25,761 bases of DNA from IMG/VR virus record IMGVR_UViG_3300026521_000036, positions 1-25,761 of that record. One strand, given 5' to 3'. This DNA is from a virus. This document shows, piece by piece, positions 5,517-20,228 of the stretch; position 1 is the stretch's first letter, and every line of letters begins with the position of its first letter. The position numbers and the translations under genes were made by a program. The notes beneath the pieces are model-generated. The model saw only the letters and a list, made by a program, of their open reading frames with translations. It was not told where the DNA came from and searched no databases.

Positions 5517-7352
5517 TTAGAAAATTGTACTACCAGTCATAATATCATCATCATCATCAAAGTCATTAGGGAAGTATCTATCAACTTCTGGTTCATTATC
5601 ACTAAATTCTATATTAGAGCTATCTTCACTTGCTAGCACATACTTGATATTTTTTATCATACTAATGAGATCACATCCATCGTCGGCTCTAGTAAAGTTC
5701 TTATGTGTAGCACCTTGTATTTGGCTAATAAATTCTCTCATATCTTCATCGTCTTTAAGATGCTTAGGAAACCACATCTTCTTCTGTAACAGTATCTGAC
5801 TAGCTATTCTAAATCTCTCATGTTTCTTAACACCAGAGCCTCTACTAAGTATACCTTTCCTAGTTCCTTTCTCATCATTAATATCTCTAGCAAAGCTAAA
5901 CCAACTACCTCTTTGCATCATCATTTTTTCTAAGCTATAAATATGAGCATTCTGATTACCATCAATCTCTACACCTATCTCTACATATTTACCTTTTCTA
6001 GTCCAGTAAGCAGCTTCGTTAAGAGTATCTTCATACTGCTGTTGCATACTTCTCTTTCTGAGTGTAAGATTAAGTAAGAACCAATCATCATTACTACTTA
6101 CAGCCCATGTAGCAATACCACTAAAGTCACTATTCTCACCACTAGTTGTAGTATAGTCAGTAGTAATATAAACATTATATCTATCTATATGGTTCTCTAC
6201 AACATTCCTATCATACCATTGAAAGCAACTATCAGGAATAAGCCTATCAGCTCCAGATGTAAGTCTAAGCATTCTCTCTTGTAAGAAGCTACCTAACTTC
6301 CCAACTCTCTTAGCATCTCTTACCATTTGTAAGATAGATATAGCAGGGTGCATAGCTTCCCAGCTGCTAAGAATAGCATTAGCTTTAAGCTTATTGCTAT
6401 CAGCATCAAAGTTTTTAGCTATAGGTATTACACAAGGTGTATAAGCACCACTAGTTACAAGTTGTGTGTTAACATCCATATAATGAAAAGGTGTAAAACA
6501 GTTTATAATTCTCCCTTTACCACCGCCTTTTAAAGCAGCAACACTATCCGAATGTATAGCAGATTCTATGTTCTCAGTAATAGTTTTAGAGTAAGCAGCA
6601 GCTTCATTCAAAATAACATCATCGAACAAAATACAACAAATTCTTCTTTCTCCGTATCTAGAACCCCTAATACCAGTACCAACACCTTGATACCTTATTA
6701 GAAAACTTCTGTTCTTCTTAGGTCCATTACCTTTACGTACAAACTCTGTCTCACTCTCAGTATATCTTACACTCTCAAAATAGTCCTTAATAAATACACT
6801 ATCTTCACACATAGCTTTAACAGCTAAAGCATTAACCCTAGCACCGCCTCTACTACTAGCAGCAATTACTAAATAAAACCATACCTTACCTATACCATTA
6901 GGAAGTACTCCTTTAATAGCACTATATACTCCAAAGAATGATATGATAACTGTAGACTTACTCATACCCCTACTCTCCATAAAAGCTAGTCTAAGGTTAT
7001 TTAAATTAATAGTCTTACATACCTCTTCACTAAATGGGAATACATTAGTATCTGTAATCTCATTAAGTAGTAAATCAACCATAAAGTAATGAGCTATAGG
7101 AGTGTTAAATTCAAAATCTCCACCTTGTACAAGTCTCATAATGTTAAAGAAGTCTACAGCATTAGGACTAGGTTTATACCTAGGGAATGTAGGATCATAA
7201 CTATCTAAAGCTTTATCTATATCAAACTTAGCTTCTTCTACAGCAGTTATAATACTCTTATTAACCTCTTCTTTAGCATCATTATCTACAATATTCTCTA
7301 TAATACTCTTATTATACTCAAACTTAATACTGCCATCTACCTCATTACTCAT
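5517..7352 (-). CDS. terL: Terminase large subunit
   Basis: 611 aa from the ATG at 7352, which has GGAG seven bases upstream; an in-frame ATG at 7367 has no ribosome site. The ATPase half shows a Walker A-like ESRGMSKST (about residues 126-134) and a Walker B ILFDD (about 241-245) after hydrophobic residues. The C-terminal nuclease half shows ITTDYTTTSG (D near 399) and VEIDG, fitting the RNase H-like acidic cluster. The C-terminus has a run of aspartates (DFDDDDD) coded by a CAT microsatellite. It overlaps terS by 8 bp (ATGAGTAA). It packages DNA into the procapsid through the portal, whose gene lies outside the window. Confidence 0.9.
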   Translation of the reverse strand: MSNEVDGSIKFEYNKSIIENIVDNDAKEEVNKSIITAVEEAKFDIDKALDSYDPTFPRYKPSPNAVDFFNIMRLVQGGDFEFNTPIAHYFMVDLLLNEITDTNVFPFSEEVCKTINLNNLRLAFMESRGMSKSTVIISFFGVYSAIKGVLPNGIGKVWFYLVIAASSRGGARVNALAVKAMCEDSVFIKDYFESVRYTESETEFVRKGNGPKKNRSFLIRYQGVGTGIRGSRYGERRICCILFDDVILNEAAAYSKTITENIESAIHSDSVAALKGGGKGRIINCFTPFHYMDVNTQLVTSGAYTPCVIPIAKNFDADSNKLKANAILSSWEAMHPAISILQMVRDAKRVGKLGSFLQERMLRLTSGADRLIPDSCFQWYDRNVVENHIDRYNVYITTDYTTTSGENSDFSGIATWAVSSNDDWFLLNLTLRKRSMQQQYEDTLNEAAYWTRKGKYVEIGVEIDGNQNAHIYSLEKMMMQRGSWFSFARDINDEKGTRKGILSRGSGVKKHERFRIASQILLQKKMWFPKHLKDDEDMREFISQIQGATHKNFTRADDGCDLISMIKNIKYVLASEDSSNIEFSDNEPEVDRYFPNDFDDDDDIMTGSTIF

Positions 7353-8118
7353 CAACAATCTCCGCATCAGCTATTTTAATATTAATCTTCTGTACATCAT
7401 CAATACTCTCACCAGCTTCTAATCTCTTCATCTGATTCTCATTCATAATTCTCAACTGTTCAGCTAACTCTTGTTGTACACTCTTAGCTTCATCACTCAT
7501 ACCAACTTTAAGATCTATAGTATTCTCAACAGGAGGTGCTAGATGATCCAATAGCTTACTAGCAGCTTGTACTTGTACCGTAGGACTTACATCTTTACCG
7601 CTTGTACTTTGTCCTCTAGCCACATTAGCAAGATTACTTATCATCTCATGATATACATGGTTATACTCTACATGAGCAGGTAGTATACTTTGTTTATCTA
7701 ACTCTACAACTAAATCAGTTTGGTTGTACATAGCTACAAAGTTATCGACCTGTTTACCTTTACTAATAAGTTCATTGTACTTCTTTCTAAATACAATACT
7801 ATAAGCTTCTTTATTAAGCATAAACTTCTTAAGATTTACATACTTAACAGCATTTACATACTTCTCTAGTGTAACCCCTTTAAGGCCTTGACCTAATAAA
7901 TGAAGACTACTAATAATCTTCTCTTCCATCATACCTTGATCTAAATCAATATCTCTTTCCATATTATTAATAGCATCTAATATCTTGTCAGTAACTTTAT
8001 GACTAGTACCTCTTGGTATTCTTTTTTCTAGCTCTTCTCTAGTTATTCCAATAGCTTTAGGAGCTACTTTTGTAAGTAATTTTTTATTTATTTCTGTTGG
8101 TTTTGTAGTTGCGGTCAT
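7345..8118 (-). CDS. terS: Putative terminase small subunit
   Basis: 257 aa from the ATG at 8118, with GAGG six bases upstream; a TTG twelve bases earlier is open but sits on the ribosome site itself. The protein is mostly helical and charged, with no membrane segment. Position directly before terL with an 8-bp overlap is the main reason for the call; small terminases diverge too far for motif recognition. The C-terminal third (EELRIMNEN-like, about residues 205-245) is likely coiled. It would recognise the packaging site and load TerL. Confidence 0.6.
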   Translation of the reverse strand: MTATTKPTEINKKLLTKVAPKAIGITREELEKRIPRGTSHKVTDKILDAINNMERDIDLDQGMMEEKIISSLHLLGQGLKGVTLEKYVNAVKYVNLKKFMLNKEAYSIVFRKKYNELISKGKQVDNFVAMYNQTDLVVELDKQSILPAHVEYNHVYHEMISNLANVARGQSTSGKDVSPTVQVQAASKLLDHLAPPVENTIDLKVGMSDEAKSVQQELAEQLRIMNENQMKRLEAGESIDDVQKINIKIADAEIVDE

Positions 8119-12872: not shown

Positions 12873-13019
12873 GTGGAGTAAGGTAGTGGTACGATTACGT
12901 GGGATTAGTGTCCCACTCCGTTCCACTGATCTCCGATAGCCCGCCCCTATGCTAGCAATCACTCCGTTCTTCTATGCTCCTTTCGTCACTAGCCAGCTTT
13001 CGCTGTCTGTTTTCTCCAC
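12873..13019. other. GC-rich, foldable intergenic element (possible structured RNA)
   Basis: A stretch of about 50-57% G+C in an AT-rich genome (34 of 60 bases in 12901-12960 by hand count). Complementary segments: GTGGAG 12873-12878 with CTCCAC 13014-13019 as a closing helix; AGTGG 12885-12889 with CCACT 12923-12927; GTGGGA 12899-12904 with TCCCAC 12911-12916; GCTAG 12951-12955 with CTAGC 12989-12993; CAGC 12994-12997 with GCTG 13002-13005. On the minus strand the last is CAGC-GAAA-GCTG, a GNRA tetraloop. A 10-bp direct repeat (cactccgttc) occurs at 12914 and 12960. It lies between divergent genes, and if minus-strand it would be the leader of the HNH gene. No known RNA family recognised. 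Confidence 0.4.
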
Positions 13020-13727: not shown

Positions 13728-13747
13728 AAGGAGAGAGTGTGAGAGAG
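13728..13747. repeat. 20-bp direct repeat, copy 1
   Basis: aaggagagagtgtgagagag. An identical copy lies at 14656-14675. This copy abuts the stop codon of the ParB-like gene (13748). The two copies bracket that gene plus its upstream array. Confidence 0.8.
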
Positions 13748-14467
13748 CTACTCATTAAGTTTATATAAAAGATTAGCAAGTTCGATCATATACCTAATAG
13801 GGTCTTCTCTAGCTATTTCAATCTCCTTAGCATACCATTGCTTACCAGCTTCTGTTTTAATCATACTATCTGGATTCCATTCCGTAGCCATAGCAGTAGT
13901 AGTTAGGTTATTAGCTTCTAGTTCAAGCTTAACAGCTCTAGCAATAGTAGTTACACTGTCTGTTGATATAATAGTACCTTTGTACCTTACATCTACATCA
14001 TTACCGTTAAATAGCTCTTCTAAGTAATCAGGTCTATGCTTAGCTATATATCTCATAGAGTTAAGAGCTCTTTCACTTATTCCCCAAGAAGTAGCTATCT
14101 CTTTTAGAGTACCAGCTTTTTTATCTTGTAAACTTACTTTACAAGCTGCTGCTATCTTTTGAGTCCTAGTTAAATTCCTACGGGTATTAACAGATTTAAC
14201 ATAGATAGCTACATCTTCAATACTTAATGAAGAATCTAACTCTTTGTATAGTATAGGTTGTTTAAGTAGACGTAGAGCTTTCATTCTACATCTTCCATCA
14301 ACTACAGCACCTTTATATGTAATAATAGGTTCTCTTAAACCATTAGTACGTATATCATTAGTTAAAGCAGCTTGCTCACTATGTGTAGCCATCGGTACAA
14401 GACCTGCTAATTCCTCATTAATAGGTAATGGTCCTTCAGTGTATAATCTAGTATGTATATCATTCAT
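13748..14467 (-). CDS. ParB-like protein with HTH and FNG module (copy A)
   Basis: 239 aa. The N-terminal ParB/Srx-like domain shows SEQAALTNDIRTNGLREPI, then a GAVVDGRCRMKAL motif (residues about 51-63, DGRxR), then NTRRNLTRTQ. An HTH follows (TLKEIATSWGISERALNSM, about 135-153), then LEELFNGND and TDSVTTIA. ParB-family proteins bind centromere-like DNA or act as nucleases; the catalytic role here is unknown. AAAGG lies before the ATG. Upstream is a phased CpG array and a perfect -10. The HTH+FNG part is shared with the proteins at 15180 and 15955. Confidence 0.7.
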   Translation of the reverse strand: MNDIHTRLYTEGPLPINEELAGLVPMATHSEQAALTNDIRTNGLREPIITYKGAVVDGRCRMKALRLLKQPILYKELDSSLSIEDVAIYVKSVNTRRNLTRTQKIAAACKVSLQDKKAGTLKEIATSWGISERALNSMRYIAKHRPDYLEELFNGNDVDVRYKGTIISTDSVTTIARAVKLELEANNLTTTAMATEWNPDSMIKTEAGKQWYAKEIEIAREDPIRYMIELANLLYKLNE

Positions 14468-14512: not shown

Positions 14513-14637
14513 TGCGTTAACTATGCGTAAATACATAGTAATTCTACGTATATTGTACGTATACGGTAGTAAGTTTACGCAGCTGTGCGTAAGTTATAAA
14601 TACCTATTACGCTATACTACGTATATAAGTGCGTAAT
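14513..14637. repeat. Helically phased CpG repeat array (four ~31-bp units)
   Basis: Four diverged units starting near 14513, 14544, 14575 and 14606. Each has two CG-centred half-sites (GCGTAA, TTACGC or TACGTA) about 10-11 bp apart. CpG positions 14515, 14526, 14547, 14558, 14578, 14588, 14610, 14620 and 14632 fall close to whole multiples of 10.5 bp (0,1,3,4,6,7,9,10,11 turns); one extra CpG at 14564 is off register. Inverted pairs are TTACGC-6-GCGTAA at 14575-14592 and ATTACGC-18-GCGTAAT at 14606-14637. It lies upstream of the ParB-like copy A gene, so it is a likely binding array (operator, centromere-like or origin). No gene is present in 14468-14781. Confidence 0.7.
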
Positions 14638-14655
14638 TTGATAAATTAACATATT

Positions 14656-14675
14656 AAGGAGAGAGTGTGAGAGAG
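14656..14675. repeat. 20-bp direct repeat, copy 2
   Basis: aaggagagagtgtgagagag, identical to 13728-13747. It lies just outside the phased array, so the ParB-like copy A gene with its control region is bracketed by the pair. Confidence 0.8.
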
Positions 14676-14751
14676 GAGAGCTAGTAAATTAATAGCCTAT
14701 TAGATATCTGTAAAACCAAATCCCTATAATAGGGAGTTTGAAGGGTGTTTT

Positions 14752-15179: not shown

Positions 15180-15962
15180 TCAATGTTGACTCAAATTGTG
15201 TTCAAGCTTACGTAATAACTCACTTCTAACAATAGCAGATTGCTTACTGTAGGCTTCAACCATCATACTAACCCAATTAGTCTCATCGAGAGTAAGTTCC
15301 TCTGTAGGCATAGGAATAGGAGTATAATTAGTATCTAATCTACTAGTCTTCTCTAGAGTGTTTATAATAGTTTGAGGACTATCAGTAGGTTTAAAACCTT
15401 CTAACAAAATCTTACCACCATTAAACAACTGTTCTATAATATCAATCCTATTAAATCGTTGATATTGTTTAGCAGGTAATGGTTCATTAGCTCCACCAAT
15501 TATATTAATACGTTGTACTTGTTTAAGACTAACACCAACAGCTTTAGATGCTTCACTCATTGTAGTGTAAGTACCAGCTCTCCAGAGTTTCCAAGCTTTA
15601 ATAGCTAACTGTGTAGGATTTAATAACTCATCAACCTCATAATAGCTAGAAGTCAATATAACAGTGCCGTGCATCTCAACTATATCAGACACAAATACTT
15701 CTGAATTACCATGAGATTCACCATTAGTATGAAACAAAACATCTTTAGTAGTTACAAAAGCTTTAAATCTACGTAATAAAGCTTGTTCAATAGCTAAAGC
15801 ATCATCACTTTGATGAGAGTACAATAACTCAATATCAACCTTATTAACATTGTTAATAGCTGTATACTTAGCAAACCTATGAGCTATATCAGAAGTAACA
15901 CCTATCTTATAGAACACTTCATTAGCCTGAGTTGTGATTTTAATATAATATAGACTACTCAT
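15180..15962 (-). CDS. GIY-YIG-like protein with the shared HTH and FNG module (copy C)
   Basis: 260 aa from the ATG at 15962 (AAGG six bases upstream, 8-bp overlap with copy B). Residues 4-70 look like a GIY-YIG/T5orf172-type nuclease domain: LYYIKIT, VFYKIGVT (Y18, G21), R29 and the glutamate E59 in IEQALLRRF. Residues about 113-190 match the ParB copies: NPTQLAIKAW, an HTH with SEASKAVGVSLKQVQRI, then IIEQLFNGGK and TDSPQTIINTL. It could be a nuclease that shares DNA-recognition with the ParB-like proteins. The catalytic set is incomplete by eye, so activity is uncertain. Confidence 0.6.
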   Translation of the reverse strand: MSSLYYIKITTQANEVFYKIGVTSDIAHRFAKYTAINNVNKVDIELLYSHQSDDALAIEQALLRRFKAFVTTKDVLFHTNGESHGNSEVFVSDIVEMHGTVILTSSYYEVDELLNPTQLAIKAWKLWRAGTYTTMSEASKAVGVSLKQVQRINIIGGANEPLPAKQYQRFNRIDIIEQLFNGGKILLEGFKPTDSPQTIINTLEKTSRLDTNYTPIPMPTEELTLDETNWVSMMVEAYSKQSAIVRSELLRKLEHNLSQH

Positions 15963-16713
15963 GATAAGCCTTAAATAGATTATCATCTACAGTCTCTAAA
16001 GATAGAGCACCAACTCTACTGTAAATCATACCACTTAACTTAGTTAATAACCTAGTACCTAGTTCAGCTTCAAGCTCTTCTAACTTACTACTAAGAGTAT
16101 GTAATTCGTCATCAGTAAATATAATAGCTTTTTCTTTAGCAGATGCCTCTAATACTTCAGATTCATTAGCTTTAAAATAGTTATAAACACTTAGCAAGCT
16201 ATCAGTCATTAAAGGTTTACTTTCAGTACCAATGTTAATTTTACCACCGTTGAACATATGCTCAATGACTTTATTAGACACTAACTCACTGAGTTTCTTA
16301 GCTCTACTAAGCATTTTTCTATTAGTGCCATATCTAGCACATACAGCTTCTTGAGACTCTTTAACACCATTAGCTCTAAGCCTATCATACTCATATAAAG
16401 CATATATAGCTTTTTGTGTAGGGGTTTGATGTCTTCTAGTCTCATAACTAGTAACCATTTGTTTTACTTCTTCAATAGAAGTAGTAGATGGTATAGCTGT
16501 AGCCTTTATAGTATCAGCTTGTAGTTCTTTCATAACTAGTACTCTATGTCTGCCATCTACTACTTTACCTCTATACATTTTAATAGGCTCTAATTGACCA
16601 TTATCTTTAATATCTTGTTTTAAAGACTTATATTGCTCATTAGTCATCTTAGGGGTACTTAGTGCTAATTTATGTATTTCTATATCGTTTAGTAATATAT
16701 CTGTTACTTTCAT
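15955..16713 (-). CDS. ParB-like protein with HTH and FNG module (copy B)
   Basis: 252 aa. ParB-like N-domain: MTNEQYKSLKQDIKDNG, then YRGKVVDGRHRVLVM (DGRHR), then ETRRHQTPTQKA. An HTH follows (ESQEAVCARYGTNRKMLSRA), then IEHMFNGGK and MTDSLLSVYN; the C-terminus is helical (LSSKLEELEAELGTRLL). First gene of the minus-strand island: a consensus promoter and tandem operators lie just upstream. AAGG lies before the ATG. Probably DNA-binding and autoregulatory; a nuclease role cannot be excluded. Confidence 0.7.
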   Translation of the reverse strand: MKVTDILLNDIEIHKLALSTPKMTNEQYKSLKQDIKDNGQLEPIKMYRGKVVDGRHRVLVMKELQADTIKATAIPSTTSIEEVKQMVTSYETRRHQTPTQKAIYALYEYDRLRANGVKESQEAVCARYGTNRKMLSRAKKLSELVSNKVIEHMFNGGKINIGTESKPLMTDSLLSVYNYFKANESEVLEASAKEKAIIFTDDELHTLSSKLEELEAELGTRLLTKLSGMIYSRVGALSLETVDDNLFKAYHE

Positions 16714-16728
16714 TTCTTATACCTTATT

Positions 16729-16760
16729 TGGGAATGTAAATGTATTATACTATGTTCCCA
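16729..16760. promoter_or_regulatory. Half-site pair flanking the -10 of the island promoter
   Basis: TGGGAA (16729-16734) and TTCCCA (16755-16760) are inverted half-sites 20 bp apart, with the TATAAT of the promoter between them. They share the TGGGA half of the upstream operators. Confidence 0.4.
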
Positions 16761-16772
16761 TATATATGTCAA
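16744..16772 (-). promoter_or_regulatory. Consensus sigma70-type promoter of the ParB/GIY-YIG island
   Basis: Minus strand: TTGACA (16772-16767), 17-bp spacer, TATAAT (16749-16744), a perfect match to the consensus. The expected start is near 16737, giving a leader of about 24 bases before the ATG at 16713. It is the strongest promoter-like sequence in the window. Confidence 0.75.
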
Positions 16773-16783
16773 GAAGAGAGTTT

Positions 16784-16842
16784 TGGGAATCTGTCCCATT
16801 CTATTTTTGGGAATCTGTCCCATTTTGGTAAATCTGTTACCA
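16784..16842. promoter_or_regulatory. Three tandem operator palindromes with ATCTG centre
   Basis: Two identical sites, TGGGA-ATCTG-TCCCA (16784-16798 and 16808-16822), inside a 20-bp direct repeat with 24-bp period, and a third variant TGGTAA-ATCTG-TTACCA (16826-16842). They lie 12 bp beyond the -35 of the island promoter and about 130 bp before the plus-strand gene at 16975, so they could control both directions. Dimeric binding is implied by the inverted arms. Confidence 0.65.
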
Positions 16843-18389: not shown

Positions 18390-20228
18390 ATGATAGATAG
18401 AAGATTAGAGCTATTCAATGGTAAATATACAATGCCAACTATTAAAGATATGAAAGCTAAAGACAGTAAAGCTTATAGAGAGCTAGAAGCTATGTTTAAT
18501 GCTATGTGGAATAGTTATTTAGTAAAAGGTACTAAAGGTAGCATTAGTTTACCATATTGGGCACAAAGAGTACAGTCTCCTAAACTAATGAACATAGCTC
18601 TTAAACTACTTAGTGAGAATGGCTATATTACTGTTAGTACTAGACCTAGTCATAATTGGTCAGAAGCTAGTCTATGTGAAGATAAGCTATTAGAATATGT
18701 AACTAAAGAAGAGTTATCTAGTATTCGTAAACAGTTTAAATTCCAAAGATATATGCTTAATAACAGTGATGTTAATGAAGATTGTCAATGGTTAACATCT
18801 ACTAAAGGTACTATTAGTAATACTGGTTTACACAGAGAAGGATTTATGAAAGCTGGTAAAACAGAGTTCATGTTTGATGTAGATACTATGCTTGAATGGA
18901 AAGATGAAGTAGTATCACTTGTTAACTATGGTATAGAGAAAACATTAGTACAATATCCTAACCTTAGGGATGATCTAGCTAACTATGGTAATGTAGGTCT
19001 AGAGGTAGTAGAATACTATCTTTACACTAATGGTGTATATAACAGTGGTACTAGATATAGTGATCCTAGAGGTAGAGATATAGCAGGATATTTGTCTAAA
19101 ATAGGTAATCCAGTAGGTTATAAAATAATGCGTAGTCTACTTGTTATTCCAGAGGAATATAGACAAGTAGCTACTAATAAAGGCTTAGAAGCTAAGTATC
19201 TATTTATAGCAGAATTAGCTGGGTATAAAGCAGGTACTATAGCTGGTAAAATAGCTTATGGTAAAGAATGCTATGAGAAAAGATACCAGCATGAACTTAA
19301 CCTTATGTTAGAACATGATCTTAAAGAATTACCAGAGAATATCTGGTTAATGAGATTGTATAAAGACATAGATGGCTATATAAGTATTGATGGTTATAAA
19401 TGGACTTGTCCTATTGAACTTGATGCTAGTGCTAGTATTAAGTCTTATTATGGCTTGTTATTAGGACATAAACCATATCTAGTAGATTGTAATGTTATTG
19501 TAGAAGATGATGTACTTAATGATGCATGGTCTCATGATGTTATTAAAGATAGAAAACAAGCTAAAAGTGTTATGAGAGTACTTTATGGTAGCAAACAACC
19601 TATCATGGATATGTGGTTAGCTATGGGTATTAAAGGTACTAGAGAAGAAGCTATAGCTATGGAGAAAGATATTACTACTGGGCATTTAGCACCAGCTAAT
19701 AGAATGAAAGAGTTCATGGCTAACAATGCTAATATGTCAGCAGAGATGAACATTAACATCTGGAATGAAAAGTTCACAGTACAATGTAATAAGTTCTACA
19801 ATAGAGGTGAGACTACTATTAAGTATGACTTCTATGATAGCCATAGTAAAAGTGTTAGACGTATACATCATACAGATACTATTAAAGTACCTAACCTTCA
19901 AAGATTTAAAATCTATACAAGTACATTACTTATACATCACCTTGATAGTAGATCTATGGATGTTACTTGTAATGTAGTATATGATGCTTACCAATGGTGT
20001 CTACCTATACATGATGCTCAGATTTGTGACTGTGAAGCTACAGACTTAGCTAGAGAAACATACGCTAAACAAATAGAACTTATCTATAGAGATAGAAATG
20101 GAATACTTACTAACTACTTTAGAAGTATTGGTATACAAGCTTCAGCTATTCAAGAATGGCAAGATGAAGTAATGGCTTATGTTGAACCAGTAAAAGAGTT
20201 TAAATGCTCTAAAATGGTTCTTAAATAA
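18390..20228 (+). CDS. Single-subunit phage RNA polymerase
   Basis: 612 aa. Template/strand motif: SDPRGRDI (224-231; D225, R227-G228-R229), like T7 DWRGRVY. Motif A: ELDASASIKSYYGLLLG (343-359; D345), like T7 VDGSCSGIQ. Motif B: DRKQAKSVMRVLYGSK (387-402; K392, Y399-G400), one residue tighter than T7. Motif C: PIHDAQI (539-545; H541-D542), followed by TYAKQIELIY and YFRSIGI (576-582). T7 RNAP is 883 aa, and N4 RNAP II is two chains of about 670 in total, so this is compact and may need a partner. It transcribes phage DNA in the cytoplasm. AAGGAA before the ATG. Confidence 0.82.
   Translation: MIDRRLELFNGKYTMPTIKDMKAKDSKAYRELEAMFNAMWNSYLVKGTKGSISLPYWAQRVQSPKLMNIALKLLSENGYITVSTRPSHNWSEASLCEDKLLEYVTKEELSSIRKQFKFQRYMLNNSDVNEDCQWLTSTKGTISNTGLHREGFMKAGKTEFMFDVDTMLEWKDEVVSLVNYGIEKTLVQYPNLRDDLANYGNVGLEVVEYYLYTNGVYNSGTRYSDPRGRDIAGYLSKIGNPVGYKIMRSLLVIPEEYRQVATNKGLEAKYLFIAELAGYKAGTIAGKIAYGKECYEKRYQHELNLMLEHDLKELPENIWLMRLYKDIDGYISIDGYKWTCPIELDASASIKSYYGLLLGHKPYLVDCNVIVEDDVLNDAWSHDVIKDRKQAKSVMRVLYGSKQPIMDMWLAMGIKGTREEAIAMEKDITTGHLAPANRMKEFMANNANMSAEMNINIWNEKFTVQCNKFYNRGETTIKYDFYDSHSKSVRRIHHTDTIKVPNLQRFKIYTSTLLIHHLDSRSMDVTCNVVYDAYQWCLPIHDAQICDCEATDLARETYAKQIELIYRDRNGILTNYFRSIGIQASAIQEWQDEVMAYVEPVKEFKCSKMVLK

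What the first reader, a model, noticed from the sequence alone, without database searches (positions are those of the whole stretch)
14513..14637. Helically phased CpG repeat array upstream of a ParB-like gene
In an AT-rich phage, nine of ten CpG steps in this stretch sit on a 10.5-bp grid (turns 0,1,3,4,6,7,9,10,11 from 14515; one at 14564 is off). They group into four ~31-bp units, each with paired GCGTAA/TTACGC or TACGTA half-sites. Spacing by whole helical turns puts all sites on one face of the DNA, as in iterons, parS arrays or strong operators. The array sits directly upstream of a ParB-like gene and covers its -35 region. The sites do not match the chromosomal parS consensus as I know it.
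Basis: seen in the sequence. Interest (0 to 1): 0.75.

Follow-up and report, generated by a model that had tools for sequence, protein, structure and literature searches.

The report
Private operator array of phage ParB
A lytic phage carries, in front of a gene for a ParB-like DNA-binding protein, a row of short repeated sites all facing one side of the DNA helix; relatives keep the layout but each phage spells the sites differently, which suggests that the protein switches its own gene through a lock-and-key code private to that phage.

Summary
Ten CpGs lie in 125 bp of a strongly CpG-depleted phage (at most 7 per 125 bp in 100 shuffles of the window), nine of them on a 10.5-bp grid (p = 0.0003). 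The CpG is incidental: it is the core of a 6-bp half-site (TACGCA/TGCGTA/TACGTA) that occurs nine times, once as the palindrome TTACGCA-N4-TGCGTAA. The window is a fragment of a lytic, N4-like podophage. In relatives with a homologous ParB-like gene, the operon promoter carries the same kind of array (6-bp half-sites, usually N4 palindromes, 10.5-bp phasing, in register with the -10), but nearly every lineage uses another half-site. Recognition-helix residues of the ParB-like protein track the half-site, with moderate statistics. None of 25 records has ParA or an integrase, and the dyads tested occur essentially once per phage record, at this promoter. I read the array as the autoregulatory operator of the ParB-like protein, probably repressive. 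In the window it overlaps a TTAAC-N6-TTAAG-N11-TATAAT promoter that matches the HP1043/HsrA box of Helicobacter, which points to a Campylobacterota host. It is not a parS centromere. New variant of a known kind: ParB/KorB-family operators. Binding itself is untested.

The parts
13748..14467 (-). ParB1: ParB-like regulator (239 aa; ParB N-domain + HTH; predicted recognition helix residues 132-144)
   Evidence: PHROG ParB-like matches; AF2 model pLDDT 88 whose Foldseek and VIA matches are ParB/Noc/KorB/Spo0J; homologs with arrays in about 20 phage contigs
14513..14635 (.). Array of nine 6-bp half-sites: 14513-14518, 14524-14529, 14545-14550, 14556-14561, 14576-14581, 14586-14591, 14608-14613, 14618-14623, 14630-14635
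   Evidence: half-site scan, R = 0.94 at 10.5 bp; CpG grid
14575..14592 (.). Central palindrome TTACGCA-GCTG-TGCGTAA, half-sites 98/88 bp upstream of the -10 hexamer
   Evidence: top dyad by unsupervised scoring; only such dyad in the record; palindrome at the same distance in L013, L016, L021, L034
14505..14521 (-). Activator-type box GTTAAC-N5-ATTAAG in place of a -35, overlapping the proximal ParB half-site
   Evidence: TTAAG-N6-TTAAG-N11-TATAAT class, 11 sites at this spacing against 0-2 at other spacings; matches HP1043 consensus TTTAAG-N5-TTTAAG (PMC5253667, PMC8345958)
14488..14493 (-). -10 hexamer TATAAT of the ParB1 promoter
   Evidence: 11 nt downstream of TTAAG
14721..14735 (-). Terminator-like hairpin that separates the upstream leftward genes from ParB1, consistent with ParB1 having its own promoter
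15955..16713 (-). ParB2: second ParB-like regulator, paralog of ParB1 (30% identity)
16729..16842 (.). ParB2's own array with another half-site (TGGGA-N5-TCCCA twice, TGGTAA-N5-TTACCA once, further TGGGAA/TTCCCA copies), flanking and inside a consensus TTGACA-N17-TATAAT promoter (16772-16744, -)
13728..13747 (.). Left copy of an exact 20-bp direct repeat AAGGAGAGAGTGTGAGAGAG that flanks the ParB1 gene + array
14656..14675 (.). Right copy of the same 20-bp direct repeat

Best explanation
The array is the autoregulatory operator of ParB1. A ParB1 dimer binds the 18-bp palindrome TTACGCA-N4-TGCGTAA through its HTH domains (one half-site per monomer, half-sites one helical turn apart). [quoted passage not shown] The row of bound protein reaches the promoter, where the proximal half-site overlaps an activator-type box (GTTAAC-N5-ATTAAG) that stands in for the -35, so that ParB1 and the activator or RNA polymerase exclude each other; the likely net effect is that ParB1 represses its own gene once made. 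Shown by sequence: array, geometry, promoter, conservation of architecture, private half-sites per phage, ParB fold (predicted), no ParA or integrase in the records. Inferred: that ParB1 is the binder, cooperativity, and the sign of regulation. In the relatives the same array stands at the head of the ParB operon.
For: Arrays with the same geometry lie upstream of the ParB-like operon in relatives found only by protein similarity (RNAP alignment; ParB alignment), and again in three contigs fetched last (L035-L037). Pooled over 25 promoters, exact 6-mer direct repeats 11 bp apart are 6.7/kb against 0.33/kb elsewhere in the same contigs. Half-site phasing at 10.5 bp without the window: Fisher p = 1.8e-7; after collapsing all neighbouring pairs still p = 0.001 (this run includes the window), while 8.5, 9.5, 11.5, 12.5 bp give 0.3-0.99. 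Half-sites are in register with the -10 across phages, p = 0.0004 without the window. Half-sites sit on the -35 box, in the -35/-10 spacer or on the TTAAG box in at least ten loci: window ParB1 and ParB2, L003, L004, L007, L016, L017, L031, L034, L035. The dyads scanned occur once per phage record, apart from scattered one-mismatch sites. All seven loci with xxxGCA half-sites have Arg at residue 133 of the recognition helix against 1 of 13 others (Fisher p = 1e-4); residues 132-137 are the six-residue stretch that best tracks the half-site after removing overall protein distance (family-wise p = 0.005; 0.016 without two near-duplicates). Known ParB specificity residue R173 lies in the recognition-helix region of C. 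crescentus ParB (PMC7383237).
Against: No binding data. The covariation depends on the half-site calls: with automatic calls on 13 loci it is p = 0.015 (column) and 0.06 (stretch), and with 14 loci, one of them called in a shifted register, it is not significant; on the tree only four independent contrasts are available, three agree, none disagree, one is uninformative. The nearest relative, L013 (54% identity), keeps Arg133 but has TGGGAA sites. Most of the array lies far upstream of the promoter, a position that would also suit activation or looping. L014, L026 and L032 have weak or no recognisable arrays.
Confidence: 0.65

Rival explanations
1. ParB1 binds the array but activates or anti-silences transcription (VirB-like) rather than repressing, or uses the array as a loading site from which a nucleotide-gated clamp slides.
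For: Most sites lie upstream of -40, in register with the promoter; ParB-fold N-domain with conserved R59, R61, N94, R97 in the region of the nucleotide pocket; VirB and KorB are ParB relatives that regulate transcription with CTP (PMC11790492, PMC12704722).
Against: Operators inside or on the core promoter in window ParB2, L017, L035, L004, L007 favour occlusion.
Confidence: 0.2
2. A host transcription factor, or a different phage protein, binds the array.
For: The TTAAG box overlapping the array does look like a host regulator site (HP1043 consensus).
Against: The half-site differs between related phages although promoter and gene order are kept, and the two ParB paralogs of the window have different arrays; the recognition helix tracks the half-site.
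Confidence: 0.1
3. The array is a parS-like centromere of a partition system.
For: ParB-like protein next to a cluster of palindromic sites.
Against: No ParA family match in 25 records up to 113 kb, while the control rings in all 14 reference genomes; no integrase either, so probably a lytic phage with nothing to partition; array tied in register to a promoter. Records may be fragments.
Confidence: 0.03
4. Replication iterons.
For: Phased repeats in an AT-rich intergenic region.
Against: No recognised replication initiator next to it in the window; sites sit in fixed register with a -10 across phages; N4-type phages are not known to use iterons (own knowledge).
Confidence: 0.02

Closest known systems
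KorB / OB of plasmid RK2 (ParB-family transcriptional repressor, PMC11790492)
   Same: ParB N-domain + HTH fold (Foldseek 8qa8/8qa9, VIA Z 9-10); palindromic operators at promoters
   Different: KorB acts on several plasmid promoters through a shared operator (own knowledge); here one operator cluster per phage, private sequence, arrayed in 10.5-bp phase. No recognisable Pfam ParB match, CTP binding untested.
ParB-parS and Noc-NBS (PMC7383237)
   Same: Same fold (best VIA match M. xanthus ParB 7bnk, Z 12.5); palindromic sites of similar size; specificity varies with residues of the HTH region
   Different: Site does not match parS (TGTTTCACGTGAAACA, own knowledge) or NBS; no ParA; local promoter association instead of chromosome marking
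HP1043/HsrA box promoters of Helicobacter (PMC5253667, PMC8345958)
   Same: Two TTTAAG hexamers with 5-bp spacer replacing the -35 immediately upstream of the -10
   Different: Found on phage promoters; in the window one hemi-site (GTTAAC) deviates where the ParB half-site overlaps it
Cluster A mycobacteriophage repressor and its operators (PMC6550527, seen in search results only)
   Same: Phage repressors whose operator specificity diverges between relatives (own knowledge)
   Different: Those are temperate phages with many sites genome-wide (own knowledge); here no integrase found and one cluster per record

Membership tests
ParB/Noc/KorB superfamily (protein) | ParB-type N-terminal domain followed by HTH DNA-binding domain | tested here: met
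   AF2 model; all top Foldseek hits E 6e-5 to 1e-3 and VIA Z 9-12.5 are ParB, Noc, KorB, pNOB8 ParB; sequence families give only weak PHROG ParB hits and no Pfam hit
ParB/Noc/KorB superfamily (protein) | CTP (NTP) binding and clamp closure | not testable with these tools
   DGRCR (R59, R61) and NTRR (N94, R97) conserved in alignment A6, consistent but no proof
ParABS partition system | ParA ATPase encoded nearby | tested here: not met
   PF13614 0 of 25 records, control 14 of 14; records may be fragments
ParABS partition system | parS consensus TGTTTCACGTGAAACA | tested here: not met
   array read directly; half-sites are TACGCA-type
Autoregulatory operator array | sites overlap the regulator's own core promoter | tested here: met
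Autoregulatory operator array | sites bound by the regulator | tested here: inconclusive
   recognition-helix covariation; no binding assay possible
HP1043/HsrA-type promoter | TTTAAG-N5-TTTAAG immediately upstream of -10, no -35 | tested here: met
   window GTTAAC-N5-ATTAAG-N11-TATAAT, one mismatch in the ten TTAAG positions; class enriched at exactly this spacing
HP1043/HsrA-type promoter | host encodes the regulator (Campylobacterota) | not tested
   host inferred only: a homolog lies in a Sulfurimonas MAG contig
Temperate phage repressor system | integrase/lysogeny genes | tested here: not met
   PF00589 0 of 25 records; records may be incomplete

The most novel reading that the evidence does not exclude
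A family of lytic-phage ParB proteins has turned the ParB fold into a private, fast-diversifying switch: each phage has its own recognition helix and matching operator spelling within a fixed, helically phased architecture, used to shut a host-activator-driven early promoter and possibly to exclude only its own kind (superinfection exclusion).
Probability: 0.3. Interest if true: 0.8.

Novelty: new variant of a known kind. Interest (0 to 1): 0.6.

Why it matters
About a dozen natural operator spellings paired with homologous ParB-fold proteins give a ready-made data set for how ParB-family DNA specificity evolves, dissected in detail for the ParB/Noc pair. It also gives ParB-like genes of lytic N4-like phages, which are often labelled partition proteins, a concrete role: local gene control. 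The promoter overlap with an HP1043/HsrA-type box suggests that phages of Campylobacterota plug into an essential host regulator, which can be tested directly.

Tried and rejected
Single-protein scans of IMG/VR with ParB1, terminase and RNAP found nothing, and blastn against phages found nothing; an RNAP alignment with Alteromonas phage AD45 opened the way. DNA hairpin (N4 vRNAP-type promoter) reading: the fold of the array is only weakly better than shuffles (z -2.1 and -1.6), and half-site orientation is mixed, so rejected. Exact 6-mer counts per promoter are significant in about half the loci only; pooled spacing statistics were needed. A first version of the covariation window ranking was spoiled by undefined values and was redone. 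Rfam gives nothing at the array. Sequence search of PDB with the ParB profile: no hit.

Full report
WHAT THE WINDOW IS. The window is an entire IMG/VR record of 25,761 bp. It encodes a terminase large subunit of the N4 type (5517-7367, about 29% identity to N4-like phages) and a phage RNA polymerase-like protein (18390-20228) whose named relatives are Alteromonas phages AD45. It is therefore a fragment of a distant relative of N4-like podophages. It has GC 32% and CpG observed/expected 0.25. Two ParB-like genes lie on the minus strand: ParB1 (13748-14467) and ParB2 (15955-16713), 30% identical.

THE OBSERVATION. The ten CpGs at 14515-14632 are there. Nine lie on a 10.5-bp grid (turns 0,1,3,4,6,7,9,10,11), p = 0.0003 against dinucleotide shuffles, and the local CpG density exceeds everything in 100 shuffles of the window. 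The CpG is only the core of a half-site: nine copies of TACGCA with at most one change, R = 0.94 at 10.5 bp. The best unsupervised dyad is the palindrome TACGCA-N4-TGCGTA, part of TTACGCAGCTGTGCGTAA at 14575-14592, and it occurs once in the record.

RELATIVES. An alignment of the RNA polymerase with AD45 found ten related loci, most of which carry a ParB-like gene on the opposite strand between terminase and RNA polymerase. An alignment of the ParB-like proteins found 22 loci in viral contigs (L027, L028, L030 and L025 repeat or nearly repeat loci already held) and later three in genome bins, among them a Sulfurimonas MAG contig. In nearly all of these the promoter region of the ParB operon has an array of short half-sites, but the spelling changes: TGCGCA (L004, L007, L035), TACGCA (L019, L020), AGTGCA (L034, L037), CGGACA (L015), TAGACA (L018, L022), CAGACA (L036), TGAACA (L016), CGCACA (L021), TGGGAA (L013), TGGATA and close variants (L003, L017, L024, L026, L031), TGGGTA (L033), GTATAAC in the AD45-like branch (L002, L006, L012), CCTAAC (L010), GGTAAC (L008). 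ParB2 of the window has its own array built on TGGGA-N5-TCCCA. L014 and L032 have no clear array; L023 and L029 are cut off before the promoter.

GEOMETRY IS CONSERVED. Pooled over 25 promoter regions, exact 6-mer direct repeats at 11 bp occur 6.7 times per kb against 0.33 per kb in the rest of the same contigs; neighbouring distances are not raised comparably. Half-sites in the relatives are phased at 10.5 bp (Fisher p = 1.8e-7 without the window); this partly reflects the palindrome used to define them, so all neighbours within 12 bp were collapsed: still p = 0.001 at 10.5 bp (window included), nothing at 8.5, 9.5, 11.5, 12.5. The arrays are also in register with the -10 hexamer across phages (p = 0.0004 without the window), and the palindrome starts 97-99 bp upstream of it in the window, L013, L016, L021 and L034. 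L016 repeats the window's pattern of pairs every three turns (0,1,3,4,6,7) with an unrelated half-site.

THE PROTEIN. AF2 with 22 homologs gives a confident model (pLDDT 88). All significant Foldseek matches are ParB, Noc, KorB, Spo0J or pNOB8 ParB; VIA-align puts M. xanthus ParB first (Z 12.5) and KorB at Z 10. Sequence alone gives no Pfam match. The predicted recognition helix is residues 132-144. All seven loci with a half-site ending in GCA have Arg at 133, against 1 of 13 others, and residues 132-137 track the half-site better than any other six-residue stretch once overall protein distance is removed (family-wise p = 0.005, or 0.016 without near-duplicates). This is moderate evidence: with fully automatic half-site calls it weakens to borderline or disappears, depending on one call, and on the tree only four independent contrasts exist (three agree, none disagree, one uninformative). 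It agrees with the known role of R173 in the HTH region of C. crescentus ParB (PMC7383237).

THE PROMOTER. Upstream of the ParB1 -10 (TATAAT, 14493-14488) there is no -35, but GTTAAC-N5-ATTAAG. A scan over all loci for two TTAAG at every spacing shows a single peak: 6 bp between them and 11 bp to the -10, 11 sites against 0-2 for other spacings; six of the 11, plus one in L013 with a 10-bp gap, are at ParB promoters or the head of the ParB operon. This is the consensus and position of the HP1043/HsrA activator of Helicobacter (TTTAAG-5bp-TTTAAG immediately upstream of the -10 in place of the -35; PMC5253667, PMC8345958). Boxes of other OmpR-family regulators (PmrA, QseB) look similar (own knowledge), so the assignment is an inference; with the Sulfurimonas contig it suggests Campylobacterota hosts. 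In the window the ParB half-site in TTAACGCA overlaps the first hemi-site. In window ParB2, L017 and L035 the half-site lies in the spacer of a near-consensus TTGACA/TATAAT promoter, and in L004 and L007 on the -35 position. That placement favours repression by occlusion.

ALTERNATIVES. Partition: no ParA in 25 records, control positive in 14 of 14. Lysogeny repressor: no integrase in 25 records. Genome-wide silencing: the three dyads scanned (TACGCA, TAGACA, AGTGCA) occur at the ParB promoter and otherwise only as scattered one-mismatch sites in phage records up to 113 kb. Activation instead of repression cannot be excluded.

LITERATURE. Searches found no description of such operators for phage ParB-like proteins; the library holds open-licence papers only. 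A 2025 survey of the ParB fold notes its wide occurrence in phages, largely uncharacterised (PMC12704722).

Noticed in passing
L013:8012, L015:6566, L024:5714, L019:2116, L014:6592: TTAAG-N6-TTAAG-N11-TATAAT promoters also occur away from the ParB gene, for example ahead of a small gene and the terminase in L024 and an uncharacterised 261-aa gene in L019: an HP1043-like promoter class used at several places in these phages.
   Followed up: partly
13728-13747 and 14656-14675: Exact 20-bp direct repeat AAGGAGAGAGTGTGAGAGAG brackets ParB1 together with its array, as if gene and operator had moved as one cassette.
   Followed up: no
12877-13010: Second CpG-dense, GC-rich non-coding stretch (8 CpG per 125 bp) between the late genes and 13052(+); RNA fold only weakly better than shuffles (z -1.7), no Rfam match.
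   Followed up: partly
18390-20228: The RNA polymerase-like protein is one 612-aa chain in the window, but split into two or more ORFs in AD45 and several relatives; it resembles N4 RNAP II subunits by motif (own knowledge).
   Followed up: no
L012:9878-10176, L012:10808-11069, L002:9791-10045: Group I introns lie in the RNA polymerase gene region of relatives.
   Followed up: no
L002:1940-2070, L004:7540-7640, L006:7560-7650, L012:6700-6800, L007:6240-6330: Conserved leader of the divergent rightward operon (a GGGGGG(T)AC run, then AGTAATGCC, then ACAAAATTT), with a possible hairpin and T-run: perhaps a leader terminator or attenuator.
   Followed up: no
L007:5890-6010: A second repeated motif (GACATTA/TAATGTC) besides the TGCGCA array, perhaps sites of another regulator.
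   Followed up: no
window: CpG observed/expected of 0.25 is lower than in every related locus examined (0.41-0.94).
   Followed up: no
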